Source: Crossiella sp. SN42 (GTDB taxonomy: Bacteria > Actinomycetota > Actinomycetes > Mycobacteriales > Pseudonocardiaceae). From it: DNA of 64,000 nucleotides. Every line of letters begins with the position of its first letter. Position 1 is the stretch's first letter. Positions 24,982-61,500 of this stretch are shown here, in pieces. The position numbers were made by a program, and so were the translations under genes. The notes beneath the pieces were generated by a model, which saw nothing but the letters and a program-made list of their open reading frames with translations, was not told the origin of the DNA and ran no database searches. Where the stretch lies: contig NZ_JAMHIV010000007.1 of assembly GCF_023897065.1 (NCBI RefSeq), positions 186,001 through 250,000 on the forward strand, written 5' to 3'.

Positions 24982-25018
24982 TAGAATTTGAACAAACCGG
25001 CGGGGCCACTGACAGTTG

Positions 25019-25039
25019 ACCATGACCCGATGGCATGGT
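25019..25039. promoter_or_regulatory. ACCATG-N9-CATGGT palindrome between isonitrile synthase and LysR
   Basis: A perfect 6-9-6 dyad lies in the 122-bp divergent intergenic region. LysR-type regulators usually bind T-N11-A-like dyads in this position, so this is a candidate LysR site controlling both genes. Confidence 0.45.
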
Positions 25040-30039: not shown

Positions 30040-30079
30040 CGTCGCCAGGCGGGAGACGCGGCGAGCGGAGGAGGGGGAC

Positions 30080-31186: not shown

Positions 31187-31227
31187 CCGGGTGGTGGCGG
31201 CCGGGTGAGGCGAACGGAGCGCGGACC

Positions 31228-47055: not shown

Positions 47056-47091
47056 GAGGAGGAACCGTCACGGCCAGGACGGTTCCTCCTC
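47056..47091. terminator. Bidirectional hairpin between chaB-like and SDR genes
   Basis: GAGGAGGAACCGTC (47056-47069) and GACGGTTCCTCCTC (47078-47091) form a perfect 14-bp stem with an 8-nt loop. The right arm encodes the SDR C-terminus, so the coding end doubles as terminator. Confidence 0.7.
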
Positions 47092-47763
47092 GTGGCACAC
47101 CACCAGTTCGCGCAGCTGGCAGCCCGCGGGCTGGCGCAGCGCGAACAGCACGGTGTCGGCGACCCGTTCCGGCGGGTTGAGCTTGCTGTCATCGGCCGGG
47201 CGGTACTGCTCGGTGCGGGAGTCGAAGAACCGGGTGCGCATGCCGCCGGGCACCAGCAAGGTCACCCCGACCTGGCCCGCGGTCTCCATGGCCAGCGCGC
47301 GGGTGAAGCCGACCACGCCGAACTTCGAGGCGCAGTAGGCGGTGGCGTCACCGGCCACCCGCAGGCCGAGGGTGGAGGCCACGGTGACCACCCGGCCCCG
47401 GCTCACCTTGAGGTACGGCAGGGCCGCGCGCACCACGGCCGCGGTGCCGAACAGGTTGACCCGCACCACCCTTTCCCAGTCCATTGTGGACACCTCATCG
47501 AGCGGTCCGCAGCTGTCGATGCCGGCGGCGGTGACCACGCCGTCGAGTCCGCCCGCGCGTTCGGCGAGCTGGGTCACGGCGTGTTCGGCGGCCGCGGTGT
47601 CGGTCAGGTCCACGGTCAGGGCGTCCTTGGCCGGGATGTCCGCGGCCGGGGTGTCCTTGTCCAGCACCAGTGCGGTGCCCCCGGCCTCGTGCACGGCGCG
47701 CACCACGGCCGCGCCGAGTCCGGACGCGCCGCCGGTGACCAGGATGACGCCTACCTCGTTCAC
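47068..47763 (-). CDS. Short-chain dehydrogenase/reductase
   Basis: 231 aa. Classical SDR: TGGASGLG, AAGIDSCGP, the Ser in VASTLGLR, Y-x-x-x-K in AYCASKFG, then PGGMRTRF. It oxidises or reduces an alcohol/ketone with NAD(P). It is the last gene of the minus-strand glycan operon, 12 bp after the HldE-like gene, with GAAGGAGAACC before its ATG. It might act on a sugar intermediate (inference from context). A near copy (GTCCATTGTGGAC) of the coding palindrome lies at 47479-47491. Confidence 0.85.
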   Translation of the reverse strand: MNEVGVILVTGGASGLGAAVVRAVHEAGGTALVLDKDTPAADIPAKDALTVDLTDTAAAEHAVTQLAERAGGLDGVVTAAGIDSCGPLDEVSTMDWERVVRVNLFGTAAVVRAALPYLKVSRGRVVTVASTLGLRVAGDATAYCASKFGVVGFTRALAMETAGQVGVTLLVPGGMRTRFFDSRTEQYRPADDSKLNPPERVADTVLFALRQPAGCQLRELVVCHEEEPSWP

Positions 47764-47775
47764 TGGTTCTCCTTC

Positions 47776-49098
47776 TCAGCTCAGTCGGTCCAGGGCGGTT
47801 ACCAGCCTGCTGGTGGAGCGGCCGGGGTGGTAGGGCACGACCACGGTGCGGCCGCCCCAGCCGCGCAGCAGCCCGGCCTCGGGCAGGGTGTCGGCGTTGT
47901 AGTCGGCGCCCTTGACCCAGATGTCGGGGCGCAGCCGCCGCAGCGCGGCCTCCGGGGTGTTCTCCTCGAAGACCACCACGGCGTCCACACTGGAGAGTGC
48001 GCGCAGCAGCTCGGCGCGTTCCCTGGCCGGGTTGACCGGGCGGCCGGAGCCCTTGAGGCGGCGCACCGACTCATCGGAGTTCAGGCACACCACCAGGCAG
48101 TCGCCGAGGCGGCGGGCGGCGGCGAGCATGCGCACGTGCCCGGCGTGCAGCAGGTCGAAGCAGCCGCCGGTGGCCACCACGGTGCCGCCCTTGGCCCGCA
48201 CCGAGCGCAGCAGTCCGTCCACAGTGGACTCACGGTCCGGCGGTGGCGTGCCGAAACCGGCCGCGCCGCCCCTGGCCAGGAAGTCGGCGGCCTGCTCGAC
48301 CGCGGCGGCCACCGCCTCGTCCACCGCGGCGCCGCGCCGCAGCGCGCAGGCGGCGGTGGCGGCGAAGCGGTCGCCCGCGCCGCAGGGGTCCAGCGCGGTG
48401 ATCTCGGGGGCGGGCACGGCGACCGGGGTGCCGCCGTGCTCCAGCAGCGCGCCACCGGCGCCGAGGGTGACCACCACCGCGCCGGCCCGCCAGCGTTGGC
48501 GCAGCAGCGCGGCCGCGGCGTACTCATCCGGCGCGCCGGTGGCGGCCAGGGCCTCGGCCCGGTTGGGGGTGGCCAGGCGGACGCCGGGCACCGGATCCGG
48601 GCCACGCGGGTGCGGGTCCCAGACCACCGGGATCCGGCTGGCGCGGCTGGCCAGCAGCTCGCGCAGGCGTTCATCGGCGGCCAGGCCGCGGCCGTAGTCG
48701 GAGACCAGCACGGCGGTGGCCCCGGCGACCGCCTCCAGCATCTCCTCGGTGACCTCCGGGCGGGCGCTGTGGCCGTAGTCCAGGCGGGCCAGGGATCGGC
48801 CGTCGGCGCGCAGTCTCGCTTTCACCGTGGTGGTTCCGGGCAGTTCACCGGCCACTGTGGACACTCCGTGCAGGGCGGCGCGCAGCCGGTCGGCCTCGGC
48901 GTCGCGGGCCAGCGCGGTGACCAGGGTGACCGGTTCGCCGTCGGCGGCGGCCAGGCTGGCGGCCAGTGCCGCGCCGCCGGGGCGGTCGCGCCGGTCGTCG
49001 AGGTCGAGCACGGGTGCGGGGGCGTCGGGGCAGAGCCGGTCGGCCCGGCCGTCGAGGTCCACATCCAGCAGCGAGTCGCCGAGGACGACCAGGCTCAT
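47776..49098 (-). CDS. hldE: HldE-like bifunctional heptose-7-P kinase/heptose-1-P nucleotidyltransferase
   Basis: 440 aa from ATG 49098. The N-terminal PfkB kinase domain (about 1-295) has RPGGAALAASLA, VLVSDYGRG, ATPNRAEA and the anion-hole DPCGAGDRF (GAGD 240-243). The C-terminal cytidylyltransferase-like domain (about 305-440) has TGGCFDLLHAGHVRML (310-323) and LNSDESVRRLKGSGRPV. This is the full HldE arrangement: phosphorylation then nucleotide transfer to make ADP-heptose or a related NDP-heptose. It overlaps gmhA by 4 bp. It carries one exact GTCCACAGTGGAC palindrome (48217-48229). Confidence 0.9.
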   Translation of the reverse strand: MSLVVLGDSLLDVDLDGRADRLCPDAPAPVLDLDDRRDRPGGAALAASLAAADGEPVTLVTALARDAEADRLRAALHGVSTVAGELPGTTTVKARLRADGRSLARLDYGHSARPEVTEEMLEAVAGATAVLVSDYGRGLAADERLRELLASRASRIPVVWDPHPRGPDPVPGVRLATPNRAEALAATGAPDEYAAAALLRQRWRAGAVVVTLGAGGALLEHGGTPVAVPAPEITALDPCGAGDRFAATAACALRRGAAVDEAVAAAVEQAADFLARGGAAGFGTPPPDRESTVDGLLRSVRAKGGTVVATGGCFDLLHAGHVRMLAAARRLGDCLVVCLNSDESVRRLKGSGRPVNPARERAELLRALSSVDAVVVFEENTPEAALRRLRPDIWVKGADYNADTLPEAGLLRGWGGRTVVVPYHPGRSTSRLVTALDRLS

Positions 49099-49691
49099 GA
49101 CACCCTCCTGCGCGCAAGTGTGTCCATTGTGGACAGTTCGGCTTCGAAGGCGGTGCACAGCAGGTGCACCAGCACCAGCTGGGCCTCCTGCACGTTGGGG
49201 CTGGGCCCGTCCAGGGCCAGGGTCTCATCGGCGATTTCGGCCAGCGGGTTGGGCGCGGGGCCGGTGCAGGCCCAGCTGGTGGCGCCTGCCTCGCGGGCGG
49301 CTTCGGCGGCGCGCACCAGGTTGGGGCTGCGGCCGCTGGTGGACAGCAGCACCACGATGTCCAGTGGCCCGGCGTGCGCGCGCACCTGGCGGGCGAAGAC
49401 CTCCTCGTAGCCGTAGTCGTTGCCGATGGCGGTGACCGAGGAGGACTCCGCGCACAGCGCGATCGCGGAGAAGGGCCTGCGGTCCTCGCGGAAGCGGCCG
49501 ACCAGCTCCGCGGTGAGGTGCTGGGCCTCGGCCGCCGAGCCGCCGTTGCCCGCGGCCAGCAGCCGGTGCCCGCCGCTGAGCCGGTGCGCCAGCACCCGGC
49601 CCCAGCGGCGCAGCAGCGGTTCGTGCTGCCGCAGGTTCTCCAGGGTCTGGTGCAGGCCGTCGAGGTGGCCGCCGATCAGCTCGCCGCTCAT
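49095..49691 (-). CDS. gmhA: GmhA-like sedoheptulose-7-phosphate isomerase
   Basis: 198 aa SIS-domain protein. Motifs: [67 protein letters not shown], and the C-terminal [20 protein letters not shown]. GmhA converts sedoheptulose-7-P to D-glycero-D-manno-heptose-7-P, the first step to NDP-heptose. It is joined by ATGA overlaps to the GT4 gene upstream and hldE downstream, which supports a working pathway. Confidence 0.92.
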
Positions 49692-50908
49692 CGCCCCTCC
49701 CCCACGACCGCGCCCTCGGCCGCGCCGACCCTGGTGATCCGCTGGTAGGCGCGCACGGTGTCGGCGGCGATCCGGTCCCAGCCGTAGCGGGCGGTGACCC
49801 GGTCGTTGCCCGCCACGCCGAGAGCCTGGGCGAAGGCGGGGTCGCCGGTGACCTGGCGGATCGCCTTGGCCAGCGCCTCGGGTTCCCGCGGTGGCACCAG
49901 CACGCCGGTGACGCCGTCGACCACGGTGTCGGTGAGGCCGCCGACCGCGGTGGCGATCACCGGCCGGGCGCAGCTCATCGCCTCCAGCGGCACGATGCCG
50001 AAGGGCTCGTACCAGGGCGCGCAGACCACGGCGTCGGCCGAGCGCAGCAGCGGCGGCATGTCCTTGCGCGCCACCTGTCCCAGCAGCACCACGCGGTCGG
50101 CCACGCCGTGCCGTTGCGCGTGCGCGCGCAGCCGCCTGGCCTCCGCGTCGTGCTCCAGGTCGCCCTCGGCGGGCCCGCCCGCGATGACCAGCTCGACATC
50201 GGGGGTGGCCACCAGCGCGCTGATGATGAGGTCAAAACCCTTGCGTGGCACCAGTCTGCCCACCGAGACCAGGCGTTTGCGGTGGTTGCGCGGGGCGGCC
50301 GGGCCGAACTGGTCGAACAGGTCCAGGTCGACCCCGCAGGGCACCACCGAGATCCGGGCCCTGGGCACGCCGAGGCGGACCAGCTCGAAGACCTCGTCGG
50401 AGCAGGTGGCGATGACCCGGTCGGCGGCCCGGCCGACCACGCGTTCGATGCCGATGCGTTCCGGCGGGCTGCTGTCGGCGCTGCCCTGGTGGCGGCGCTT
50501 GACCACGCCGAGGGCGTGGAAGGTCTGGGCCAGCGGCAGTTTCAGGTCGCGGGCGGCCAGCTCACCGGCCAGGCCGGACATCCAGAAGTGCGCGTGCGCC
50601 ACCTCGGGCCGCTCGTGCGCCCAGTGCCCGCGCAGCCGCCTGGCGAAATCGCCCATGTGCGGCAGCAGCTCGTCCTTGGGCAGCTGGCGGGCCGGTCCGG
50701 CGTCGATGTGCACCACGGTGTAGCCGGGTTCGACCTCGACCCGCTCGGGCAGGTCCGGAGCGTCGCGGCGGGTGTAGACGCTCACTTCATGTCCGCGCCG
50801 GGTCAGTGCGGCCGAGAGCTCGGCCACGTGCAGGTTCTGACCGCCCGCGTCGACTTCACCGAGCACGGCCAGCGGGCTGGCGTGCTCGGAGATCATGGCG
50901 ATCTTCAT
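49688..50908 (-). CDS. GT4-family glycosyltransferase
   Basis: 406 aa from ATG 50908. The GT-B fold is clear: [48 protein letters not shown] (acceptor domain), [21 protein letters not shown], and the donor motif [36 protein letters not shown]. It transfers a sugar from a nucleotide donor; the N-terminal GGQNLHV resembles sucrose-phosphate-synthase-like GT4 enzymes. Coupled to gmhA and the next GT by 4-bp overlaps. Confidence 0.9.
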
Positions 50909-51864
50909 CGGGTCACCTCCGTCAAGATGTGGTCCCAGTGGTCGACGAAGGCCGTCAACCCGTGGTGTGCCAGAACGTGTTCGCGCGCGCCCGCGCCGAG
51001 CTCGCGGGCCATCGCCGGATCCGCGGTCAGCGCGCGCAGCGCTGCCACCAGGTCCTCGACCCTGGTGGAGAGCACCCCCGCGGTGGGTGGCACCGCGCGC
51101 GGCGCCTCGGTCACGGCCAGGGCGAGCACCGGCATACCCAGGTGCATCGCCTCCAGCATCGCCAGGCCGAGTGAGGTCCAGCGGTAGGGGTGCAGGTAGA
51201 CCCGGCGCAGGGCGAGCTGGGCGTGCAGGTCCGCGGTGGCCAGGTCGCCGCAGGCAGTGAGCCGGTCGGGGCCGAGGCCGAGGTGCTCGCCCAGGCCGTC
51301 CAGGCCCATGCCGAAGACGTCCAGGGGCGCGGCGGCGGCGAAGCGGGGCAACAGGTCGGTGCCGGCCACCCGGCCGCGCCGGATGGGTTCGTTGACCACC
51401 ACCCCGGCGTGCGGGAGCTCGCCGGTGTAGCGGTGGCCGGGGTCGGGCACGCCGTGCTCGATCACCACCGTCGGAGTGGTGCCGCAGTCCCAGATGAGGT
51501 CGTTGAAGTGGGTGACGTGCGCCAGCAGCAGTTCCGGGTGGTCGGCCAGCGGGTGCCTGGCCTCGCGCACGGCCATCGGCGGGGTGTTGTGCTCGACGTA
51601 GATCGCGGGCAGGTCCTTGCCGGGGGTGCGGCCCAGCCAGCGGCTGACCAGCTCGATCTCCTCGGCCCGTTGCAGGACAACCACATCGACCTCGGTGTTG
51701 ATCAGCTCCTGCACCGGGACCTCGGTGGCGTTGGGCCAGTCCCGCCCGGCCAGGCCGAGTCCCCATTCGCCGCCCACGGGCAGGCGCGGGATGAGGTAGT
51801 CGTGCTTGCCGCGGACGAAGGAGTTCAGCCAGCCGCCGTGCACGTGCCAGATGAGTACCCTCAC
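50905..51864 (-). CDS. Glycosyltransferase (GT-B fold)
   Basis: 319 aa from GTG 51864, overlapping the previous stop (GTGA). It begins [28 protein letters not shown]; the C-terminal half has [41 protein letters not shown], the donor-site pattern of GT-B glycosyltransferases. The acceptor domain is unusual and not matched to a named family. It lies between the GT4 and GT9 genes in the heptose operon. Confidence 0.8.
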
Positions 51865-52877
51865 ACCGTCACCCCCAGCAGGCTGCGCACCGCCTCGGCC
51901 ACCGCGGTGGCCGGCACGCCGTCCAGGCACGGGTGGCCGGGCACCGGGCACACCCTGGCCCTGCTGTCCCGGCACGGCGCCCACTGGTCGCCCAGCAGCA
52001 CGTGCGGGCCGTGCGGGGCCCAGCGGACCGCGGGCACCACCGGCGCGAACAGCGAGACCACCGGGGTGCCGACCGCGGCGGCCAGGTGCGCGGGCCCGGT
52101 GTTGCCGACCACGACCGCGGCGGCGCCGGCCAGCACCCCGGCGAGCTCGGCGAAACTGGTGCGCCCGCCCAGGTCCACCGCGTGCGCCCCGGCGACCTCG
52201 GCGGTCAGCGCGGTCTCGCCGGGCCCGCCGGTGACCACCACCCGGTGGCCGTCGCGGACCAGCTCGGCCACCGCTTCGGCGCAGCGGTGCGGCGGCCAGC
52301 TGCGGGCGGGCACCGAGGCGCCGGGGTGCAGCACGACGTAGCCGGGCGGGCCGGTCAGCTCACAGGTGTCCGGGTAGCCGGTGATCGCCGGCCGTCCGTC
52401 ATCGCCGGGTGGCAGCGGGAATCCGGCCGCGGCGGCGATGGCCAGCGCGCGGTCGGCCTCCGGCTGGTCCTCGGCCAGGTCCTGCCCTGGGCGCAGCCGG
52501 ATGTCCAGCAGCGAGCCGGGATAGTCCACCGAGGCGGCGGTGAGGTGTGCGATCCCGGCCAGCCGCAGGGCCAGCGCGGTGGGCAGCGGCGACTGGTGGA
52601 AGGAGGTCAGGATGATGCCGCGGTCGCAGCCGAGCTCGCGCACGGTGGCCACCAGCGTGCTGAAGTCCGCGGGGCGCAACGGTTCCGGCTCGGGGTCGAT
52701 CCACGGGCAGTGCCAGGTGAGCACAGTGGACACTCCCGGCAGCAGGCGGGCGGCCTGCGCGCCGCGCGGTCCGCACAGCAGCGCCACCTCCGCGGTGTGC
52801 GCGACCGCCCGGATCGCCGGTCCGGCCAGCAGCACGTCGCCCTCACTGTCCAACCGGCACACCAGCACCCTGCTCAT
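51861..52877 (-). CDS. GT9-family heptosyltransferase-like protein
   Basis: 338 aa. GT9 motifs: [57 protein letters not shown], and [28 protein letters not shown]9 members are mainly ADP-heptose-dependent LPS heptosyltransferases in Gram-negative bacteria. In an actinomycete without LPS the acceptor must be another glycan or a natural product. It is between gmhB and the GT genes, all coupled by 4-bp overlaps. Confidence 0.9.
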
Positions 52878-53422
52878 CGCCGGACCTCCGCGGGCAGCAA
52901 CAACTCCAGCGCGGCGGTCAGGTCCGGTGCGACCACCGGGGCGTTGCGGATCTCATGCGGAAGGGTGACCGGGGTGGGCACCAGGATCCCGTGCGCCCCT
53001 GCGGCTTGCGCGGCCTGCACATCGGAGCCGATGTCGCCGATCACCACGGTGGCGCAGGGCGGCACGCCGAGCTCGGCGCAGGCGGCCAGCACCATGCCCG
53101 GCCGGGGTTTGCGGCAGCGGCAGCCCGCCAGCGGCCCGTGTGGACAGACCTGCCAGGTGTCGAAGGGCCCCAGCAGCTCCACCATCCGCCGGTGCACGGC
53201 CGCGACCTGGGCCAGGGACAACAGTCCTCGTGCGACACCGGACTGGTTGGTCACCACACCGGTGCGCACGCCCCTGGCGCGCAGCGCGGCCACTGCCTCG
53301 GCGGCGCCGGGCATGGGCGTCACCAACTCGGGATCCCCGTTGTACGGGACATCCCGGACAAGAGTGCCGTCCCGGTCGAAGAGCACCAGACCGGGCCAGG
53401 CGGAGTGCACGATTCCGCTCAC
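52874..53422 (-). CDS. gmhB: GmhB-like heptose-1,7-bisphosphate phosphatase (HAD-IIIA)
   Basis: 182 aa from GTG 53422. HAD motifs: FDRDGTLV (nucleophile), VVTNQSGVARG, the Zn-type loop CPHGPLAGCRCRKPRPGM typical of GmhB, and GDIGSDVQAAQAAGA. It removes the C7 phosphate from heptose bisphosphate before nucleotide transfer. It is the first gene of the seven-gene minus operon. An upstream GTTT element exists (about 53465) but its -10 is poor, so the promoter is uncertain. Confidence 0.88.
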   Translation of the reverse strand: MSGIVHSAWPGLVLFDRDGTLVRDVPYNGDPELVTPMPGAAEAVAALRARGVRTGVVTNQSGVARGLLSLAQVAAVHRRMVELLGPFDTWQVCPHGPLAGCRCRKPRPGMVLAACAELGVPPCATVVIGDIGSDVQAAQAAGAHGILVPTPVTLPHEIRNAPVVAPDLTAALELLLPAEVRR

Positions 53423-53496
53423 GTGGCGAGGCTTGCCGGGCGAAGAGGTACTAAACACTTCTCCGAGAAACGCTACTCAGCGTGACATCGGGGGGC

Positions 53497-53521
53497 GTGT
53501 AGGGCGGTCGGACCCGGGTAC
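53497..53521 (+). promoter_or_regulatory. SigB/SigF-like promoter for SRPBCC gene
   Basis: GTGT (53497-53500), 15-nt spacer, GGGTAC (53516-53521), 36-nt leader with GAGGAGG before GTG 53558. Confidence 0.6.
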
Positions 53522-53557
53522 ACCAACCCCGAACCCCCCGTTTTGTGAGGAGGCGGC

Positions 53558-54031
53558 GTGACCACGATCGAGAAGTCGGTGGACGTCCAGGTGCCGGTGA
53601 GCACCGCGTACAACCAGTGGACCCAGTTCGAGACCTTCCCCCGGTTCATGGAGGGCGTGGAACGCATCACCCAGGTCACCCCGACCCGGACGCACTGGCA
53701 CACCAAGATCGGTGGCGTGGAACGGGAGTTCGACGCCGAGATCACCGAACAACACCCGGATGAGCGAGTGGCGTGGAAGACCATCGACGGTCCGCCGCAC
53801 GGCGGTGTGGTGACCTTCCACCGGCTCGACGACAAGACCACCAGGGTCAGCCTGCAGATGGAGTACCAGCCGGAGACGCTGACCGAGAAGGCGGGCGCGG
53901 CGCTGGGGGTGGTGGAGCACCGGGTCTCCGGGGACCTGAAGCGGTTCAAGGAGTTCATCGAGCAGCGGGGCGCGGAGACCGGCGCCTGGCGCGGTGATGT
54001 GGGCCGCTCGCCGCAGCAGGGCGAGCGGTAA
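53558..54031 (+). CDS. SRPBCC-fold protein (cyclase/dehydrase family)
   Basis: 157 aa from GTG 53558. The START-like SRPBCC fold is clear: IEKSVDVQVPVSTAYNQWTQFETFPRFMEGVERITQV, HWHTKIGGVEREFDAEI and the long C-terminal helix VSGDLKRFKEFIEQRG. It has a hydrophobic cavity for a small ligand; the activity is unknown. A close paralog lies at 62866-63336, and both have SigB-like promoters. It is convergent with the GT2/small-protein locus over a hairpin terminator. Confidence 0.85.
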   Translation: MTTIEKSVDVQVPVSTAYNQWTQFETFPRFMEGVERITQVTPTRTHWHTKIGGVEREFDAEITEQHPDERVAWKTIDGPPHGGVVTFHRLDDKTTRVSLQMEYQPETLTEKAGAALGVVEHRVSGDLKRFKEFIEQRGAETGAWRGDVGRSPQQGER

Positions 54032-54045
54032 CCGGGCGCGCGGGA

Positions 54046-54074
54046 AGGGCCGGGCACCCCAGGCGCCCGGCCCT
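54046..54074. terminator. Hairpin between SRPBCC and GT2/small-protein locus
   Basis: AGGGCCGGGC (54046-54055) and GCCCGGCCCT (54065-54074) make a perfect 10-bp stem with a 9-nt loop. It probably ends transcription from both sides. Confidence 0.65.
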
Positions 54075-54088
54075 CGCCGTGTGCGGAC

Positions 54089-54319
54089 TCAGCCGCTGAG
54101 TCGCTGCGCGAGCATGGCCTTGGCCTGCTCGGCGCCCTTGCGGCTCTCGTTCTGGGCCTTGCGGAAGAACTCGGCCAGCTCGCTGTCGCCCGCCTTCTCC
54201 GCGTCCTGGATGTAGGTCTCCAGGCGCAGCACGTTGGACAGGCAGGCCTCGGTGAACCAGATGATGTTGTAGTCCTTGTCCCGGGTTCCGGTCACGGAGC
54301 CGGTTTCGGTGGTGGACAC
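54089..54319 (-). CDS. Small conserved-looking protein with its own start inside the GT2 frame
   Basis: 76 aa from GTG 54319, preceded by GGAGGAGGAT (54330-54321) and a GGGTAG element at 54369-54364. Residues about 14-76 are helical (KDYNIIWFTEACLSNVLRLETYIQDAEKAGDSELAEFFRKAQNESRKGAEQAKAML). It has no known function. The ribosome site and promoter-like element suggest it is normally a separate gene; here it is also the C-terminus of the GT2 reading frame. Confidence 0.65.
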   Translation of the reverse strand: MSTTETGSVTGTRDKDYNIIWFTEACLSNVLRLETYIQDAEKAGDSELAEFFRKAQNESRKGAEQAKAMLAQRLSG

Positions 54320-55237
54320 GGATCCTCCTCCACTTGTCTGGGGTGTGGTGGTTCCCTGTGGGCCTACCCGGCCTGGCGCGCTCCATGCCTGGCGTTGGAG
54401 TAGCGCCAGCCGTTGTTCCACCTCCGCGGGCAGGCGTCGCCGGTCGCGCAGCACGCCGGGCAGCCGGGCCAGCGCCGCCGCCAGCACCCGGGGGCCTCCC
54501 GCGCGCAGCTGTGCCCAGGTGGCCGCGGCGATCTCCGGCCACGGCCTGCGCAGCCACACGGTGAGCAGGGCGTTGCGGGCCTGGAGGCGCCGCCGGGACG
54601 CCGAGGGCGGCCGGATCCGCGAGGGGTGGTGGTGGGAGACCAGCTCGGGCACGTGGCACTGGGCCCAGCCGGCCGCGGCCAGGTCCCAGGACAGCAGCTG
54701 CTCCTCGCCGGGGAAGAACAGCACCGGGGAGAACCCGCCGCAGGCCAGGAACGCCTCCCGGCGCACGATCGCCGCGCAGGCCAGGAATCCCAGCACCGAC
54801 ACCCCCGGCAGGCCGGGTTCCCGGCCCAGCGGGCTGGCGGCCAGCTCGGCGCTGAGCGGGTCCAGCCGCTGCTCCGGGCCGACCAGGGTGCGTGCGGAGA
54901 GCAGCCCCAGCCGGGGGCAGGCGTCGAAGAGCCGTTCGGCCTGCTGGAGGGAGCCGGGCGCCCACCAGGAGTCGTCGTCGCTGAAGGCCACGTACGGGGT
55001 GCGCGCGACCGCCACCCCGTGGTTGCGGGCGGTGGCGCCCCGGTTGCCGGACAGGGGGATCAGCCGCACCTGCGGGAACTCCGTGGGCAAACGTTGCCGG
55101 GTGCTGTCGCTGGAACCGTTGTCCACCACCACGATCGGCGGTGGCGGGTCCAGTCCGGTGAGCCGGTGCAAGGTGTGCCGCAGCTCGTCCCAGCGGTCCC
55201 TGGTGGCGATCACCACGGTGGTGCGCGCGCTTGTCAT
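54089..55237 (-). CDS. GT2-family glycosyltransferase running in frame into a downstream small protein
   Basis: 382 aa from ATG 55237. Residues about 5-215 are a GT2 domain (TVVIATRDRWDELRHTLHRL, VVDNGSSD, GNRGATARNHGVA, YVAFSDDDSWW, EEQLLSWDLAAAGW). A helical region follows (to about 290). There is no stop: the frame continues through SAPGRVGPQGTTTPQTSGGG into a separate-looking 76-aa protein, which keeps its own ribosome site and GTG. The stop codon of the GT2 seems to have been lost, giving a fusion. The promoter is SigB-like (55247-55271). Confidence 0.75.
   Translation of the reverse strand: MTSARTTVVIATRDRWDELRHTLHRLTGLDPPPPIVVVDNGSSDSTRQRLPTEFPQVRLIPLSGNRGATARNHGVAVARTPYVAFSDDDSWWAPGSLQQAERLFDACPRLGLLSARTLVGPEQRLDPLSAELAASPLGREPGLPGVSVLGFLACAAIVRREAFLACGGFSPVLFFPGEEQLLSWDLAAAGWAQCHVPELVSHHHPSRIRPPSASRRRLQARNALLTVWLRRPWPEIAAATWAQLRAGGPRVLAAALARLPGVLRDRRRLPAEVEQRLALLQRQAWSAPGRVGPQGTTTPQTSGGGSVSTTETGSVTGTRDKDYNIIWFTEACLSNVLRLETYIQDAEKAGDSELAEFFRKAQNESRKGAEQAKAMLAQRLSG
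54364..54369 (-). promoter_or_regulatory. SigB/SigF-like -10 element for the small protein
   Basis: Minus-strand GGGTAG inside the GT2 C-terminal coding DNA, 44 nt before GTG 54319. The -35 is weak. Confidence 0.35.
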
Positions 55238-55246
55238 GCCTTCGAG

Positions 55247-55271
55247 CTACCCGCCCTGGCGCGGCCGACAC
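55247..55271 (-). promoter_or_regulatory. SigB/SigF-like promoter of GT2
   Basis: Minus strand GTGT (55271-55268), 15-nt spacer, GGGTAG (55252-55247), 9 nt, ATG 55237. Confidence 0.65.
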
Positions 55272-55275
55272 CGAC

Positions 55276-55300
55276 GTTTCCCCGGCCAGGCCCCGGGTAG
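55276..55300 (+). promoter_or_regulatory. SigB/SigF-like promoter of the UXS-UGD operon
   Basis: GTTT (55276-55279), 15-nt spacer, GGGTAG (55295-55300): a full consensus match, 4 bp from the opposite -35 of the GT2 promoter. The leader carries AAAGGGG (55323-55329). Confidence 0.75.
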
Positions 55301-55335
55301 CCGCCGGGGTGGAGCGGATGAGAAAGGGGCTCGCG

Positions 55336-56295
55336 ATGCGGTTCGAACGGGTGGTGGTCACCGGGGGCGCGGGCTTCCTCGGGTCCTCCGTGTGCGAGGA
55401 GCTGGTGTTCTCCGGGGTGTCGGTGGTGTGCGTGGACGACCTGTCCACCGGACGTCTGTCCAATGTGGACGCTGTGGCGGAGCATCCGCGGTTTCACTTC
55501 CAGCACGCCGACATCACCGAGCCGCTGCGGGTGCCCGGCCCGGTGGACGCGGTGCTGCACCTGGCCTGCCCCGCCTCGCCCGCGGACTACCTGCGCGAAC
55601 CGGTGCGGACCATGCGCACCGGCTCACTGGGCACGCTGCACGCCCTGGAGCTGGCCAAGGCGCACCGGGCCCGGTTCCTGCTGGCCTCCACCAGCGAGGT
55701 CTACGGCGACCCGCTGCGGCACCCGCAGACCGAGGACTACTGGGGCAACGTCAACCCAGTAGGTCCACGCAGCGTCTACGACGAGTCCAAACGTTTCAGC
55801 GAGGCGCTGACCACCGCCTACCTCGGCCAGTACGGGCTGCGCGCCTCGATCGCCCGGATCTTCAACAGCTACGGCCCCCGGATGCGGCCCGACGACGGCC
55901 GGATGATCCCCACCTTCATCCGCCAGGGCCTGGCCGGGGAGCCGATCACCGTCTTCGGCGACGGCGCGCAGACCCGCTCGCTGTGCTACGTCAGCGACAC
56001 CGTCCGCGGCCTGATCGCCTTGGCCCGCAGCGGGATTCCCGGCCCGGTCAACCTCGGCAGCCCCGAGGAGCACCCGGTGGCCTGGATCGCCGAACGCATC
56101 CGCGAGCTCACCGGCAGCACCGCGCCGGTGGTGCACGAGCAGGCGATGACCGACGACCCGCGCCGCCGCTGCCCGGACATCACGGTGGCCACCCGGGAAC
56201 TGGACTGGGCCCCGGAGGTCTCGCTGACCGAGGGGCTGCGGCGGACCGTGGACCACTTCGCCGCGGCCTCGTTTGCCCACCGGGTCGCCGGGTAG
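55336..56295 (+). CDS. UDP-glucuronate decarboxylase-like (UDP-xylose synthase) SDR epimerase
   Basis: 319 aa from ATG 55336 (AAAGGGG 6 nt upstream; ATG 55318 is less well placed). The extended SDR fold: VVVTGGAGFLGSSVCEELV, the UXS signature HLACPASPADYLREPVRTMRTGSLGTLHALELA, STSEVYGDPLRHPQTEDYWGNVNP, YDESKR, RIFNSYGPRM. It should make UDP-xylose from UDP-glucuronate. UGD in the same operon supplies that substrate, which supports the reading over a dTDP-glucose 4,6-dehydratase. Confidence 0.85.
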   Translation: MRFERVVVTGGAGFLGSSVCEELVFSGVSVVCVDDLSTGRLSNVDAVAEHPRFHFQHADITEPLRVPGPVDAVLHLACPASPADYLREPVRTMRTGSLGTLHALELAKAHRARFLLASTSEVYGDPLRHPQTEDYWGNVNPVGPRSVYDESKRFSEALTTAYLGQYGLRASIARIFNSYGPRMRPDDGRMIPTFIRQGLAGEPITVFGDGAQTRSLCYVSDTVRGLIALARSGIPGPVNLGSPEEHPVAWIAERIRELTGSTAPVVHEQAMTDDPRRRCPDITVATRELDWAPEVSLTEGLRRTVDHFAAASFAHRVAG

Positions 56296-56304
56296 CCGAT
56301 CGCC

Positions 56305-57942
56305 ATGCGCGTCCTGGGAATCAACGCCATCTTCCACGACCCCGCCGCCGCGCTGGTGGTGGACGGCCGGGTCGTCGCCGCCGCGGAGGAGGAGCGGTTC
56401 AGCCGCCGCAAGCACGGCAAACGACCGCTGGCCTTCTCCGCCTGGGAGCTGCCCGAGCAGTCGGCCCGCTGGTGCCTGGCCAAGGCCGGGCTCACCCCGT
56501 CCGATCTGGACGCGGTGGCCTACTCCTACGACCCCGGCCTGGTCGAGCCCGGCCAGCAGGGCCTGGACGGTGACTGGGAGGAGCTGCGCACCACCTACGC
56601 GCGGCGCGCCCCCCGGTTCCTGGCCACCGCGTTACCGGGCCTGGACCCGGGCATCGTGCGCTTCGTGCCGCACCACATGGCGCACGCCGCCTCCGCCGGG
56701 CTGGCCGCCCCCTTCGGCGCGGACTCCGCGGTGCTGGTGGCCGACGGCCGCGGCGAGTGCGCTTCCCACCTGGGCGGCAGCTACCGCGACGGGCAGCTGG
56801 AAGTGCTGGCCTCGCAACGTCTTCCGCACTCACTCGGGCTGATGTACGAGTCGCTGACCGAGCACCTGGGCTTCCTGCGCTCCAGCGACGAGTACAAGGT
56901 GATGGCCCTGGCCTCCTACGGCACCCCGGTGCACGCTGACCTGTTCCGCGAGCTGGTGCGCACCACCGACGAGGGCGGTTTCCGCATCGAGCCCATCGAC
57001 TGGAACGCACTGGCCAAGCGCCGCGAGTCCGGCGAGCTCGGCCCCGAGCACGCCGACCTGGCCGCCAGCGTGCAGCTGCGGGTGGAGGAGGTGCTGCTGG
57101 AGCTGGCCGGCTGGCTGCACGAGGCCACCGGTCACCGGCGGCTCACCATGGCCGGCGGGGTGGCGCTGAACTGCGTGGCCAACACCAGGATCCACGCCGA
57201 GGGCCCGTTCGAGGAGGTCTGGGTGCAGCCCGCCGCCGGCGACGCGGGCACCGCGCTGGGCGCGGCCCTGCACGTCACCGCCACCGAGGACGCCCCCGCC
57301 GCGCCGATGCCGGGCGCGGACCTGGGCCGGGAGTTCTCCGCGCAGGAGATCCGGCAGTGCCTGGACACCGCGAACCTGGTCTACACCGAGCCCGCCGACA
57401 TCGCCGTGACGGTGGCCGAAGCGCTGGCCGATGACCAGGTGGTGGCCTGGTTCCAGGGCCGCGCCGAGTACGGGCCGCGCGCGCTGGGCCGCCGCTCGCT
57501 GCTGGCCCACCCCGGCCGGGCGGAGAACCTGGCCCGGCTCAACGACGTCAAGGGCCGCGAGCAGTTCCGGCCGGTCGCGCCGATGGTGCTGGCCGACCGC
57601 GCGGCCGAGCTGTTCGAGCGCGGCCCGATCCCCAGCCCGCACATGCTCTTCGTGCACGACGTGCGCCCGGAGTGGCGGGCGCGGATCCCGGCGGTGGTGC
57701 ACGTGGACGGCACCGCCCGGATCCAGACCGTGGACCCGGAGCAGGATCCGTTGATGGGCCGGGTGCTGCGCGAGTTCGCCGCGCGCACCGGACTGCCGGT
57801 GGTGGTCAACACCAGCCTCAACACCGCCGGCCGCCCGATGGTCGACGATCCGAGGGATGCCTTGGAGTGCTTCGGTTCCGCGCCGATCGACCTGCTCGCC
57901 ATCGGCCCGTTCGCCCTGCGCAGAAAGGGACTGGCTCGATGA
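56305..57942 (+). CDS. NodU/CmcH-family carbamoyltransferase
   Basis: 545 aa. N-terminal Kae1-like domain (RVLGINAIFHDPAAALVVDGRVVAAAEEERFSRRKHGKRPLAFSAWEL, PHHMAHAASA, VLVADGRGE, MAGGVALNCVANTRIHAEG) and C-terminal YrdC-like carbamoyl domain (YGPRALGRRSLLAHP, FRPVAPMVL, VVNTSLNTAGRPMVDDPRDAL). It transfers a carbamoyl group from carbamoyl phosphate via carbamoyl-AMP to a sugar hydroxyl. It lies 9 bp after the UXS gene and overlaps the next GT2 (ATGA). Confidence 0.93.
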   Translation: MRVLGINAIFHDPAAALVVDGRVVAAAEEERFSRRKHGKRPLAFSAWELPEQSARWCLAKAGLTPSDLDAVAYSYDPGLVEPGQQGLDGDWEELRTTYARRAPRFLATALPGLDPGIVRFVPHHMAHAASAGLAAPFGADSAVLVADGRGECASHLGGSYRDGQLEVLASQRLPHSLGLMYESLTEHLGFLRSSDEYKVMALASYGTPVHADLFRELVRTTDEGGFRIEPIDWNALAKRRESGELGPEHADLAASVQLRVEEVLLELAGWLHEATGHRRLTMAGGVALNCVANTRIHAEGPFEEVWVQPAAGDAGTALGAALHVTATEDAPAAPMPGADLGREFSAQEIRQCLDTANLVYTEPADIAVTVAEALADDQVVAWFQGRAEYGPRALGRRSLLAHPGRAENLARLNDVKGREQFRPVAPMVLADRAAELFERGPIPSPHMLFVHDVRPEWRARIPAVVHVDGTARIQTVDPEQDPLMGRVLREFAARTGLPVVVNTSLNTAGRPMVDDPRDALECFGSAPIDLLAIGPFALRRKGLAR

Positions 57943-59300
57943 GCTCCACAGTGGACTACGCCGTGGTGGTGCCCACGATCGGCCGGGCCAGCCTGTGGCG
58001 GCTGCTCAACTCCCTGGCCAACGCCCACGGCCCGCAACCGGCCGAGGTGATCGTGGTCGACGACCGCCCCAACCCCGAACCCCTGGGGCCGACCCCGATC
58101 CCGGTGCGCGTGCTCACCTCCGGCGGCCGCGGCCCGGCGGCGGCGCGCAACGTGGGCTGGCGGGCCACCGAGTGCGAGTGGATCGCCTTCCTGGACGACG
58201 ATGTGGTGGTCAGCCCCGACTGGCCGGAACGACTGGCGGCGGACCTGGCCCGGCTGGACGCGAAGGTCGCGGCCAGCAAGGCCAAGATCACCGTGCCCCT
58301 GCCGACCGACCGCGCGCCCACAGATGCCGAACTGGGCACCGCGGGCCTGGCCCAGGCGGAGTGGATCACCGCGGACATGGCCTACCGGCGCTCGGCGCTG
58401 GCCGAGGTCGGCGGCTTCGACGAGCGGTTCCCCCGGGCCTACCGGGAGGACGCCGAGCTGGCGCTGCGGGTGATGGACCAGGGCTTGGAACTGACCGAGG
58501 GTGAGCGATCGACCACTCACCCCGTGCGTGAGCAAGGATTCCTGGCCAGCGTGCGGGCGCAGCGGGGGAACACGGATGACGCGTTGTTGCGGCACCTGGT
58601 GGGGGCGGGGTGGCGGGAGCGGATCGGCGGGCAGCCGGGGCGGTTGCGGTGGCACGTGGTGACGACCGGGGCGCTGGTGGCGGCGGTGGGGTTCGGGCTG
58701 GCCGGGCTGCGGCGGGGCGGGACCGGTGCTGGGGCGCTGGCGGGACGGCGGGCGGAGGCGCTCGCCGGGCTGCGAGCCGGAGCGCTCAGTAGGAGGCGGA
58801 CCACGGCGTTTGTCGGCAGGCGGGCCGGAGTGCTCGGCAGGTCGCGGGCCACGACGCTCATCAGCAAGGCAGCGGGAGCACTCGGCGGGTCGCGGGCCAC
58901 GACGCTCATCAGCAAGGCAGCGGGAGCACTCGGCGGGACGCGGGCCACGGCGCTTGTCGGCAGGCGAGCCGGAGCGGTTGTTGGGCAACTGACCAGCGCG
59001 GTCGCCGGGCCGCGAGCTGGCGCAAACGCCCGGCGGCGCACCGCAGCGCTCGTGGGGGCGCTCGCCGCTCGCCAGACGGCGGCCGGGCCGGGAAACCCTG
59101 CCTGGCCCCGGCGGGCGGCACTGGTCGCCGGGCTGGTGTGGGCGGGGCTGACCGCGGAGTTCGCCGCCCGGCGGATCCGGCCCGGCCCCCGCACCCCGGA
59201 TGAGATCGCCCGCATGGTCGTGACCAGCGTCATCATCCCGCCCATGGCCTGTCTGCACCGGCTGCGGGGTGAACTCCGGTTCTGGCGGGTGCGCCGGTGA
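57939..59300 (+). CDS. GT2-family glycosyltransferase with tandem 16-aa repeats
   Basis: 453 aa. Residues about 6-215: GT2 domain (YAVVVPTIGRASLWRLLNSLAN, VVDDRPNP, RNVGWRATECEWIAFLDDDVVV, YREDAELALRVMDQG). Then a membrane helix (about 240-258), a repeat block (about 260-375) of units like SRATTLISKAAGALGG, a second membrane helix (about 390-405) and a basic C-terminus. Two repeats are identical at the DNA level (58842-58889 and 58890-58937). The repeat block lengthens the segment between the membrane helices. It overlaps the carbamoyltransferase (ATGA) and GT9 (GTGA). Confidence 0.85.
   Translation: MSSTVDYAVVVPTIGRASLWRLLNSLANAHGPQPAEVIVVDDRPNPEPLGPTPIPVRVLTSGGRGPAAARNVGWRATECEWIAFLDDDVVVSPDWPERLAADLARLDAKVAASKAKITVPLPTDRAPTDAELGTAGLAQAEWITADMAYRRSALAEVGGFDERFPRAYREDAELALRVMDQGLELTEGERSTTHPVREQGFLASVRAQRGNTDDALLRHLVGAGWRERIGGQPGRLRWHVVTTGALVAAVGFGLAGLRRGGTGAGALAGRRAEALAGLRAGALSRRRTTAFVGRRAGVLGRSRATTLISKAAGALGGSRATTLISKAAGALGGTRATALVGRRAGAVVGQLTSAVAGPRAGANARRRTAALVGALAARQTAAGPGNPAWPRRAALVAGLVWAGLTAEFAARRIRPGPRTPDEIARMVVTSVIIPPMACLHRLRGELRFWRVRR
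58794..58985 (+). repeat. Tandem 48-bp repeat within the GT2 gene
   Basis: Four 48-bp units, 58794-58841 (degenerate), 58842-58889, 58890-58937 (identical to the previous one) and 58938-58985 (degenerate). Each keeps the frame (16 aa). Further diverged copies extend on both sides. Confidence 0.85.
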
Positions 59301-60229
59301 GCGCGCCCGAAGTCCTCGTGCTGCGCGCGCTGGGACTGGGCGACCTGCTCACCGCGGTGCCCGCACTCCGCGCGTTGCGCCGGGCGCACTTCGACGTCCG
59401 GATCACCCTGGCCGCGCCGGAATGGCTGGCCGAGCTGGTCGGTGACATCGGTGCGGTGGACCGGCTGCTCACCACCGACGGCCTGGACGAACCGCTGCGC
59501 TGGCGTGCCCGGCCGCCCGATCTCGCGGTCAACCTGCACGGCCACGGGCCGCAGAGCACCGCGCTGCTGCGTGAGCTCGAACCGCAACGGCTGATCACTT
59601 TCGACCGGGACAGCTGGCGGGAGCAGGAGCACGAGGTGCACCGCTGGTGCCGGTTGCTCAGCGAGCACGGCATCCCGGCGGATCCGACCGACCTGCGGCT
59701 GCCCAAGCCGTGGTGTCCGGCGCCGGTGCGCGGGGCGGTGGTGGTGCACATCGGCGCCAGCCACGGGTCCCGGCGCTGGCCGGTGGACCGCTTCGCCGAG
59801 CTGGCCCGGTGGTTGCCCGGGCACGTGGTGCTCACCGGCAGCCTGCCGGAACGGCCGCGCGCCAAGGAGGTCGCCGAGCTGGCCGGGCTGCCGCCGGAGC
59901 GGGTGCTGGCCGGGCACACCTCGCTGGCCGAGCTGGCCCCGCTGGTGGCCACCGCGCGGCTGGTCGTCTGCGGCGACACCGGGGTGGCGCACCTGGCCAC
60001 CGCGTACGGCACCCCCTCGGTGGTGCTGTTCGGGCCGGTCTCCCCCGAGCTGTGGGGCCCGCCGCCGGAGCGGCCGGAACACCTGGCGCTGTGGGCCGGG
60101 ATCAGTAGTGACACCTTCGCCGACACCCCAGCCCCTGGCCTGTTGCGCATCTCGGTGGACGAGGTGCTCGACGCGGCCCGGCGGCTGCTCCCCGGAAAGG
60201 GCTCCCTGGCATGGGCGCGCAGCGGATAG
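59297..60229 (+). CDS. GT9-family heptosyltransferase-like protein
   Basis: 310 aa from GTG 59297 (GTGA). GT9 pattern: EVLVLRALGLGDLLTAVPALRALRRA, PDLAVNLHGHGPQS, VVHIGASHGSRRWPVDRFAELARWL, GDTGVAHLATAYGTPSVVLFGPVSPELWGPP. It is the second GT9 of the cluster and lies in the plus arm, so both arms use the same kind of donor. It overlaps ugd by 19 bp. Confidence 0.9.
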   Translation: MSAPEVLVLRALGLGDLLTAVPALRALRRAHFDVRITLAAPEWLAELVGDIGAVDRLLTTDGLDEPLRWRARPPDLAVNLHGHGPQSTALLRELEPQRLITFDRDSWREQEHEVHRWCRLLSEHGIPADPTDLRLPKPWCPAPVRGAVVVHIGASHGSRRWPVDRFAELARWLPGHVVLTGSLPERPRAKEVAELAGLPPERVLAGHTSLAELAPLVATARLVVCGDTGVAHLATAYGTPSVVLFGPVSPELWGPPPERPEHLALWAGISSDTFADTPAPGLLRISVDEVLDAARRLLPGKGSLAWARSG

Positions 60230-61500
60230 GCGTCATCGGCGCCGGTTATGTCGGGCTGACCACCTCGGCCTGCCTGTCCCAGCTGGGGCACCGGGTGGTC
60301 TGCTCGGATGTGGATCAGTCCACTGTGGACGATCTGCGGCACGGCCTGGTGGGCCTGCACGAGCCGGGGCTGGCCGAGCTGGTCTCCACCGGGCTGGCCG
60401 CGGGCACCCTGGACTTCACCACCGACAACCTGGCCGCGGTGCGCGGTGCGGAGTTCGTCTTCCTGTGCCTGCCCACCCCCGCGTCCGAGTCGGGTGCCGC
60501 CGACCTGGGCGCGGTGCACGCGGTGCTGGCCCAGATCGGCCCCGAGCTGCGGCCCGGCAGTGTGCTGGTGGTCAAGTCCACCGTGCCGCCGGGCACCACC
60601 GACGATCTGCGGGCCAGGCTGGGCCGCGCCGACGTCGCGGTGTCGGGCAACCCGGAGTTCCTGCGGGAGGGGCACGCGGTGGCCGACTTCCTGCACCCGC
60701 AGCGGGTGGTGGTCGGGGCGAGCGAAGAGGAGACCGCGCGCCGGGTGCTGGCCCTCTACCGGGACACCGGCGCGCCGACCCTGGTCACCGACCCGGCCAG
60801 TGCCGAGCTGGTCAAGTACGCCAGCAACAGCTTCCTGGCGATGAAGCTCTCCTACGTCAACACCCTGGCCGAGCTGTGCGAGCGCACCGGTGCCGACATC
60901 GCCGCGGTCACCGAGGGCCTGGGCCAGGACGAGCGCATCGGCCCCGCGTTTCTGGCCCCTGGACCGGGCTGGGGCGGGTCCTGCCTGCCCAAGGACACCA
61001 GGGCGCTGCTGCACACCGCCCGGCAGGCCGAGGTCGAGTTCCCGTTGCTCTCGGCCGCGATCGAGACCAACGACCGTCAACCGGCCCGGATCATCGAGGC
61101 CCTGGCCGGGTTGCTGGCCCGCCCGCTGCGCGAGGCCCGGATCGGCTTGCTGGGCCTGACCTTCAAGGCGGGCACCGATGACCTGCGCGACTCCCCCGCG
61201 CTGGCGGTGGCCGAGGCGCTGGCCGGGGCCGGTGCCCGGCTGCGCGGCTACGACCCGTGCGTGCCCGCCGAGCGGGGCCGGCTCGGACCGGTCTCCCTGG
61301 TCTCCCGGGCGGCGCTGGCGGCCGAGGGCGCGGACGCGGTGCTGCTGCTGACCGAGTGGCCGGAGTTCACCGAGCTGGACTTCCCCGACCTGGCCGCGCG
61401 CATGCGCTCCCCGGTGCTGGTGGACACCCGCGACCACCTGCCGGTGAAGGTGCTGGCCGCCGCGGGCTTCCGCCACCACCGGCTGGGACACGCCAGCTAG
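60211..61500 (+). CDS. ugd: UDP-glucose 6-dehydrogenase
   Basis: 429 aa. NAD-binding RIGVIGAGYVGLTTSACLSQLGHRVVCSDVD, VVKSTVPPGTTDDL, NPEFLREGHAVADFLHPQRVVVG, KYASNSFLAMKLSYVNTLAELCERTGAD, catalytic Cys in GPGWGGSCLPKDTRALLH, and LGLTFKAGTDDLRDSPAL. It oxidises UDP-glucose twice to UDP-glucuronate, the precursor for the UXS encoded in the same operon. It carries an exact GTCCACTGTGGAC palindrome (60318-60330). It overlaps the convergent deacetylase stop by 4 bp. Confidence 0.93.
   Translation: MGAQRIGVIGAGYVGLTTSACLSQLGHRVVCSDVDQSTVDDLRHGLVGLHEPGLAELVSTGLAAGTLDFTTDNLAAVRGAEFVFLCLPTPASESGAADLGAVHAVLAQIGPELRPGSVLVVKSTVPPGTTDDLRARLGRADVAVSGNPEFLREGHAVADFLHPQRVVVGASEEETARRVLALYRDTGAPTLVTDPASAELVKYASNSFLAMKLSYVNTLAELCERTGADIAAVTEGLGQDERIGPAFLAPGPGWGGSCLPKDTRALLHTARQAEVEFPLLSAAIETNDRQPARIIEALAGLLARPLREARIGLLGLTFKAGTDDLRDSPALAVAEALAGAGARLRGYDPCVPAERGRLGPVSLVSRAALAAEGADAVLLLTEWPEFTELDFPDLAARMRSPVLVDTRDHLPVKVLAAAGFRHHRLGHAS

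What the first reader, a model, noticed from the sequence alone, without database searches (positions are those of the whole stretch)
47068..61500. NDP-heptose plus UDP-xylose/glucuronate and carbamoyl glycan cluster in an actinomycete
One arm has GmhA, HldE-like and GmhB (a near-complete NDP-heptose pathway) with GT4, GT-B and GT9 genes; the other has UGD and UXS, a carbamoyltransferase, GT2 and a second GT9. Heptose glycosylation is a feature of Gram-negative LPS, so this organism probably uses the sugars in an unusual, perhaps carbamoylated, glycan or glycoconjugate. HldD is absent, so the D,D-heptose form may be used or the epimerase lies elsewhere.
Basis: partly seen in the sequence, partly recalled or inferred. 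Interest (0 to 1): 0.8.

Follow-up and report, generated by a model that had tools for sequence, protein, structure and literature searches.

The report
Actinomycete cell-wall heptose glycan cluster
This actinomycete carries a rearranged copy of a gene cluster, already known from Streptomyces as the cwg "cell wall glycan" operon, that very probably builds a surface sugar chain containing heptose, xylose and a carbamoyl group; related clusters are common in actinobacteria, but I found no report of what the sugar chain is.

Summary
The stretch encodes SDR, HldE, GmhA, two GT-B transferases, GT9 and GmhB on one strand, and GT2 | UXS, carbamoyltransferase, GT2, GT9 and UGD around a divergent point. 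It is not unusual. So the two arms are one cwg-type cluster, split and extended by SDR, UGD and perhaps ALDH. HldE relatives occur in 60 of 296 sampled class genomes. Catalytic motifs are conserved. No HldD reaches its cut-off here or in 46 other HldE-bearing genomes, so D,D-heptose is likely. Best explanation: ADP-D,D-heptose and UDP-xylose are made in the cytoplasm, six transferases assemble an envelope oligosaccharide, and one sugar is carbamoylated. The envelope role leans on cwg being vancomycin-induced and partly sigma-E dependent. Heptose, carbamoylation and location are inferred; product and export are open. New member of a known kind.

The parts
45205..46560 (-). aldehyde dehydrogenase, possible accessory member
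   Evidence: Pfam Aldedh 2.7e-100; a relative at 56% or more identity in 40 of 73 loci; membership in the cluster inferred
47068..47763 (-). short-chain dehydrogenase/reductase, role unknown; no match in the S. coelicolor-type locus L108
   Evidence: Pfam adh_short 7e-41; 64 of 73 loci; no hit in L108
47776..49098 (-). HldE: heptose-7-phosphate kinase plus heptose-1-phosphate nucleotidyltransferase
   Evidence: TIGR02199 184.3 bits (cut-off 181.5), TIGR02198 119.6 bits (cut-off 345); tallied residues of GAGD, HxGH and WVKGADY (G, D, H, K) invariant in 72 rows
49095..49691 (-). GmhA: sedoheptulose-7-phosphate isomerase
   Evidence: TIGR00441 138 bits (below cut-off 209); solved phosphoheptose isomerases E 1e-33; H58, E62, Q168, H176 invariant in 69 rows
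49688..50908 (-). GT4-type glycosyltransferase (MshA-like)
   Evidence: Pfam Glycos_transf_1 2.9e-37; nearest NCBIfam model MshA, below its cut-off; 70 of 73 loci
50905..51864 (-). GT-B glycosyltransferase (group 1 type)
   Evidence: Pfam Glyco_trans_1_4 35.5 bits (cut-off 27); 69 of 73 loci
51861..52877 (-). GT9a, heptosyltransferase family
   Evidence: PF01075 2.4e-21; G13, D14, N259, T260, H264 invariant in 71 rows
52874..53458 (-). GmhB-type HAD phosphatase (heptose-1,7-bisphosphate 7-phosphatase)
   Evidence: PRK08942 114.8 bits (below cut-off 178); best solved relative a D,D-heptose 1,7-bisphosphate phosphatase; D28, D30, C105, H107, C113, C115 invariant in 62 rows
54089..55237 (-). GT2a glycosyltransferase with a 77-residue C-terminal tail
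   Evidence: PF00535 1.9e-19; tail:
55336..56295 (+). UXS, UDP-glucuronate decarboxylase (UDP-xylose synthase)
   Evidence: solved UXS E 5e-97; Y148 and K152 of YxxxK invariant in 25 rows
56305..57942 (+). O-carbamoyltransferase (NodU/TobZ/GdmN family)
   Evidence: PF02543 and PF16861; solved carbamoyltransferases E 1e-93; H123, H124, H127, D147, G284, G285, N289 invariant in 33 rows
57939..59300 (+). GT2b glycosyltransferase with an in-frame tandem repeat
   Evidence: PF00535 7.8e-16; repeat 58772-58976
59297..60229 (+). GT9b, heptosyltransferase family
   Evidence: PF01075 1.4e-23; D227, T228, H232 in all 55 rows, G229 in 54, D16 in 54
60211..61500 (+). UGD, UDP-glucose 6-dehydrogenase
   Evidence: TIGR03026 424.9 bits (cut-off 189.8); tallied residues of GGSCLPKD (G, C, K, D) invariant in 18 rows

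Best explanation
This is the cwg-type glycan cluster of actinobacteria, split into two divergent arms. GmhA isomerises sedoheptulose-7-phosphate, HldE phosphorylates it, GmhB removes the 7-phosphate and HldE activates the product as ADP-D-glycero-D-manno-heptose (CDP- or UDP-heptose are also possible). With no HldD, the D,D form is used as it is. UGD and UXS supply UDP-glucuronate and UDP-xylose. Two GT9 enzymes add heptose; the GT4, GT-B and two GT2 enzymes add xylose and other sugars to an unknown carrier. The carbamoyltransferase places a carbamoyl group on one sugar. The finished oligosaccharide goes to the cell envelope. Shown here: gene set, conservation, conserved catalytic motifs, orthology to cwg. 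Inferred: the reactions, the order of assembly, carbamoylation of the glycan, the envelope location.
For: Gene content. The published cwg promoter was found exactly in one of 392 genomes of a genus I take to be Streptomyces (G582; three more with one mismatch); its HldE pairs with that of a named Streptomyces. The start of the longest first open frame lies 147 bp downstream, as printed for SCO6179. The 12 genes matched there are UXS, CarbT, GT2b, GmhB, GT9a, GTB, GT4, GmhA, HldE, GT9b and two GT2a. This agrees with the cwg annotation lines seen (B, C, E, G, J transferases, H phosphoheptose isomerase, I bifunctional synthase/transferase), except that cwgD, in the GmhB place, is named 'putative dehydratase'. 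Identities to the window are 47-71%. cwg transcription is partly sigma-E dependent and vancomycin-induced (PMC6767563, passages). Carbamoyl and heptose genes go together across 60 genomes, own included: 17 of 18 with CarbT also have HldE, against 12 of 42 without (Fisher p 2e-6, kinship not corrected). Catalytic motifs conserved. No HldD over cut-off in this genome or in 46 others with HldE. GmhA and HldE overlap by 4 bases in 60 of 69 loci. HldE has the arginine at motif position 5 that is tied to CTP/UTP use (window R427; R in 55 of 72 rows; motif from PMC11461863).
Against: GmhA, GmhB and the HldE kinase domain miss their curated cut-offs, so the substrates are not certain. No flippase, polymerase or ligase was recognised in the cluster. 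Passages read on Streptomyces wall polymers name no heptose: PMC11481543 gives teichulosonic acid and a poly(diglycosyl phosphate), and the word does not occur in the main text of PMC13274773. In 40 of 73 loci no CarbT was counted near the heptose arm (an upper bound, since in G010, G027 and G050 it lies outside the stretch), so carbamoylation may not be obligatory. One genome, G043 (460 contigs), has CarbT but no HldE. None of 3 other same-genus genomes has HldE or CarbT at the limits used.
Confidence: 0.72

Rival explanations
1. The cluster makes a diffusible heptose-containing natural product (as for septacidin or hygromycin B), with the carbamoyltransferase acting as a tailoring enzyme.
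For: Solved relatives of the carbamoyltransferase include natural-product enzymes (TobZ, GdmN, the novobiocin one); septacidin uses ADP-heptose (passages); possible secondary-metabolite genes lie upstream in the window.
Against: No core-scaffold gene in the cluster; six glycosyltransferases; the gene set recurs across many genera; the Streptomyces orthologue belongs to the sigma-E envelope-stress regulon.
Confidence: 0.1
2. The GmhA/HldE/GmhB homologues have drifted to another phosphosugar, so the activated sugar is not heptose.
For: Three of four domains score below curated cut-offs; no biochemistry for these proteins was read.
Against: Heptose models or structures are the best matches for GmhA, HldE and GmhB; metal and catalytic motifs conserved; two GT9 heptosyltransferase-family genes in the same cluster; the adenylyltransferase domain passes its cut-off.
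Confidence: 0.13
3. Two unrelated clusters (a heptose arm, and a UXS/carbamoyl arm) lie side by side by chance.
For: The arms diverge and a cyclase-like gene lies between them; the heptose arm was counted without CarbT in 40 of 73 loci.
Against: One 12-gene run in L108; a 10-gene core from both arms within the fetched stretch in 17 of 73 loci; genome-level association.
Confidence: 0.03

Closest known systems
cwg operon of Streptomyces coelicolor (SCO6179-SCO6190)
   Same: All 12 genes of the cwg-type locus L108 have window homologues, its two GT2a copies matching one window gene; phosphoheptose isomerase and bifunctional enzyme at cwgH and cwgI.
   Different: The window cluster is in two divergent arms, has one GT2a instead of two, and adds SDR, UGD and perhaps ALDH. 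Regulation in this genus is unknown; sigE-cseABC is said to appear absent outside Streptomyces.
Gram-negative ADP-heptose pathway of LPS (GmhA, HldE, GmhB, HldD, WaaC/WaaF)
   Same: Same enzyme families for the first four reactions and GT9 transferases.
   Different: No HldD over cut-off, and no lipid A or Kdo gene among the cluster's families.
Actinobacterial NDP-heptose synthetases (Tang and colleagues 2022; seen as a title in reference lists only, not read)
   Same: NDP-heptose enzymes in actinobacteria.
   Different: That title concerns tridomain fusions; here GmhA and HldE are in different frames, hence separate genes, in all 69 loci tested.
Septacidin and hygromycin B heptose pathways
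   Same: Sedoheptulose-7-phosphate as heptose source in actinomycetes (reference titles and passages).
   Different: Those are antibiotics; this cluster is transferase-rich and without a scaffold gene.

Membership tests
cwg-type cell wall glycan cluster | the 12-gene set UXS, CarbT, GT2, GmhB, GT9, GTB, GT4, GmhA, HldE, GT9, GT2, GT2 | tested here: met
   All 11 gene kinds present at 47-71% identity to L108; one of the two GT2a copies lacking
cwg-type cell wall glycan cluster | single operon in that order | tested here: not met
   Two divergent arms in the window; order varies among relatives too, so I do not treat order as defining
cwg-type cell wall glycan cluster | sigma-E dependence and vancomycin induction | not testable with these tools
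   Reported for S. coelicolor
cwg-type cell wall glycan cluster | product is a cell wall glycan | not testable with these tools
   Described as predicted or tentative in the passages seen
ADP-heptose pathway (beta branch) | isomerase, kinase, phosphatase and nucleotidyltransferase present | tested here: met
   motifs
ADP-heptose pathway (beta branch) | each enzyme over its curated cut-off | tested here: not met
   Only TIGR02199 passes
LPS-type ADP-L,D-heptose pathway | HldD epimerase | tested here: not met
   0 of 46 other genomes over cut-off and none in the own genome; over cut-off in 2 of 14 control genomes
NTP-promiscuous heptose nucleotidyltransferase (STTR5) | arginine at position 5 of (F/L)XXGXSTT | tested here: inconclusive
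   Window reads YHPGRSTS: arginine present, first and last positions differ
O-carbamoyltransferase family | both domains and the conserved histidines | tested here: met
UXS | nearest to solved UDP-glucuronate decarboxylases, with YxxxK | tested here: met

The most novel reading that the evidence does not exclude
The cwg-type clusters of actinobacteria make a carbamoylated envelope oligosaccharide built on D,D-heptose: a heptose-based 'core' in Gram-positive bacteria, raised under cell-wall antibiotic stress, with a second, carbamoyl-free form (second HldE plus ALDH) that may carry an oxidised heptose.
Probability: 0.4. Interest if true: 0.65.

Novelty: new member of a known kind. Interest (0 to 1): 0.36.

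Why it matters
It turns a long-known but, as far as I could see, chemically undefined envelope-stress operon into a testable prediction: D,D-heptose, xylose and a carbamoyl group on one glycan, with named genes for each step. It also gives a likely use for NDP-heptose in many actinobacteria.

Tried and rejected
Rejected: that the heptose genes are peculiar to this organism. HldE relatives occur in 29 of 60 relatives, own genome included (E up to 1e-30), and in 60 of 296 sampled class genomes, own included (E up to 1e-80, at least 90% completeness asked). Whether this copy came by descent or by transfer is not settled: the window HldE lies nearest Pseudonocardiaceae in the tree but with no well-supported placement.

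Rejected: that the UXS-like gene is a dTDP-glucose dehydratase.

Led nowhere: Rfam on 42000-64000 found nothing at gathering cut-offs. Paper searches gave no listed paper that I recognised as reporting heptose in an actinobacterial wall glycan: 1 paper; none; 3 papers; 25 of 60 listed; 8 of 32,449 listed. led to the cwg literature. The original cwg paper (Hong 2002) and Tang 2022 are not held, so nothing in them was read. No structure prediction was run.

Rows dropped: the synteny counts use 73 of 133 fetched stretches. Left out were L058, L061 and L063-L066, which matched few cluster genes, L062 (own genome, no hit), and 53 of the 80 named loci, by my choice and without looking at most of them. 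L060 was in the 73 but not in the GmhA/HldE frame counts. Identity limits for counting differ by gene and were set by me. In one search the HldE start taken was the candidate nearest the GmhA stop, which favours short overlaps. In one search some genomes had more first-look candidates than were scored.
Full report
WHAT IS THERE. The window lies in a 9.72 Mb, 82-contig actinomycete genome; window GC is 73%. Two runs of closely packed genes diverge near 55.2-55.3 kb. Minus side: GT2a (54089-55237), then, beyond a cyclase-like gene of the other strand (53558-54031), GmhB, GT9a, GT-B, GT4, GmhA, HldE and SDR (53458 down to 47068), packed or overlapping, and an ALDH 0.5 kb further on. Plus side: UXS, carbamoyltransferase, GT2b, GT9b and UGD (55336-61500). 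Families come from Pfam, NCBIfam and solved structures.

ARE THE ENZYMES WHAT THEY SEEM. UXS is firm. The carbamoyltransferase has both domains and matches carbamoyltransferases of known structure, including TobZ and GdmN. GmhB matches heptose-bisphosphate phosphatases best, and GmhA matches phosphoheptose isomerases better than DiaA. Among the heptose models only the adenylyltransferase domain passes its curated NCBIfam cut-off. Across relatives, the tallied residues at the expected metal, phosphate and catalytic sites are invariant: GmhA 69 rows, HldE 72, GmhB 62, UGD 18, UXS 25, CarbT 33. The G-D and (D/N)-T-G-x-x-H motifs of both GT9s hold with few exceptions (71 and 55 rows). The roles of these motifs are recalled, not looked up.

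IT IS THE cwg CLUSTER. A paper on the sigma-E regulon prints the cwg promoter and its distance to the start codon, 147 bp (PMC6767563, passages). That 29-base sequence was found exactly in one of 392 genomes of one genus and with one mismatch in three more. I take the genus to be Streptomyces because the HldE of that genome pairs with a named Streptomyces (100/98). In the exact one (L108) the longest first open frame starts 147 bp downstream. The 12 genes matched in L108 are 47-71% identical to window genes; an unmatched 0.6 kb lies between its HldE and GT9b. The order agrees with the cwg lines I could see in PMC5839063 (cwgH phosphoheptose isomerase, cwgI bifunctional synthase/transferase, B, C, E, G and J transferases), except that cwgD, in the GmhB place, is named a putative dehydratase; the lines for cwgA, F, K and L were not seen in full. 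The window cluster is therefore orthologous in content, rearranged in order, and extended by SDR and UGD.

HOW WIDESPREAD. HldE relatives: 29 of 60 relatives at E up to 1e-30 and 60 of 296 class genomes at E up to 1e-80, own genome included in both. None of the 3 other same-genus genomes has it. Named holders include Saccharothrix, Lentzea, Arthrobacter, Curtobacterium, Micromonospora and Streptomyces (the best 80 of 459). In 73 loci chosen for HldE the companions are GT9a 71, GmhA 70, GT4 70, GTB 69, GmhB 67, SDR 64, GT9b 61, ALDH 40, GT2b 35, CarbT 33, UXS 25, GT2a 21 and UGD 17. The stretches are about 20 kb, so distant companions are under-counted: in G010, G027 and G050 the carbamoyltransferase lies outside the stretch. 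Two forms stand out: with CarbT (33 loci), and without a counted CarbT but with ALDH (30 in the commonest class). Some of the second form have another HldE that falls in a separate clade (10 rows). The window has CarbT and, 0.5 kb from SDR, an ALDH. At genome level 17 of 18 CarbT genomes have HldE, against 12 of 42 others; the exception, G043, is in 460 contigs.

WHICH HEPTOSE. No HldD over cut-off in the own genome (best 118.8 bits, cut-off 274.6). None of 46 other HldE-bearing genomes has a match at E up to 1e-40 or over the cut-off (2 of 14 control genomes exceed it; in some genomes not every first-look candidate was scored). The D,D form is therefore likely, unless the SDR or another enzyme does the epimerisation. 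GmhA and HldE overlap by 4 bases in 60 of 69 loci, which suggests coupled translation. The nucleotidyltransferase motif reads YHPGRSTS. The arginine at the fifth place, which the commentary PMC11461863 ties to CTP and UTP use (passages), is there and in 55 of 72 rows, but the rest is not a perfect match, so CDP- and UDP-heptose are possible only.

HOW IT MOST LIKELY WORKS. Activated heptose and UDP-xylose are made in the cytoplasm; two GT9, one GT4, one other GT-B and two GT2 enzymes build an oligosaccharide; the carbamoyltransferase modifies one sugar. No flippase, polymerase or ligase gene was recognised in the cluster. Of the recurrent neighbour families listed that have no window member, 15 went to Pfam, one representative each: a sigma factor, dehydrogenases and oxidases, more GTs, a luciferase-like oxidoreductase, a phosphoesterase, a topoisomerase, a catalase, a PAP2 phosphatase, a pyruvyl-transferase-like frame, a family of unknown function and one without match. 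None is an obvious glycan exporter, but the list was not exhausted. A short oligosaccharide on an existing lipid or polymer fits better than a long polymer; this is inference. The envelope assignment rests on the sigma-E and vancomycin data for cwg in S. coelicolor and on the transferase-rich content.

WHAT IS KNOWN AND WHAT IS NOT. The passages seen call cwg 'predicted' or 'tentatively involved' in a cell wall glycan. A 2024 commentary by authors of the cross-kingdom heptose study says that only limited studies show what manno-heptose does in its producers (PMC11573728, passages). Passages of two papers on Streptomyces wall polymers name no heptose. My searches for heptose in actinobacterial wall glycans listed no report that I recognised; one search listed 25 of 60. 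Most subscription papers are not held, among them Hong 2002; Tang 2022 is not held either.

Noticed in passing
54092-54322: GT2a carries a 77-residue tail, in frame, that matches small open frames in L156 (73%), L174 and L054 (42-44%); it has no Pfam match. It may be a fusion or a lost stop.
   Followed up: partly
58772-58976: A 48-base, 4.3-copy tandem repeat in frame inside GT2b; the repeat stretch has no match in the loci fetched by then.
   Followed up: partly
L111, L116, L135, L140, L143 and similar loci: A carbamoyl-free form of the cluster with a second HldE (about 36-42% identity to the window HldE) and an ALDH; second HldEs form their own clade.
   Followed up: partly
L108:1214-3799: Next to the cwg-type run, on the other strand, an open frame with a short polysaccharide pyruvyl transferase match, recurring in 6 loci: possibly a further glycan modification.
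   Followed up: no
24031-25023, 29963-32697, 39803-41200: A PvcA/DIT1-like gene, a polyprenyl synthetase beside an amine-oxidase family gene, and a P450 lie upstream in the window: possible secondary-metabolite genes.
   Followed up: no
61497-62354: A polysaccharide-deacetylase family gene resembling PuuE allantoinase meets the end of UGD on the other strand; no match was counted in the relatives, and it is not taken as part of the cluster.
   Followed up: partly
53558-54031 and 62866-63336: Two polyketide-cyclase-like genes, one between the arms and one beyond the cluster.
   Followed up: no
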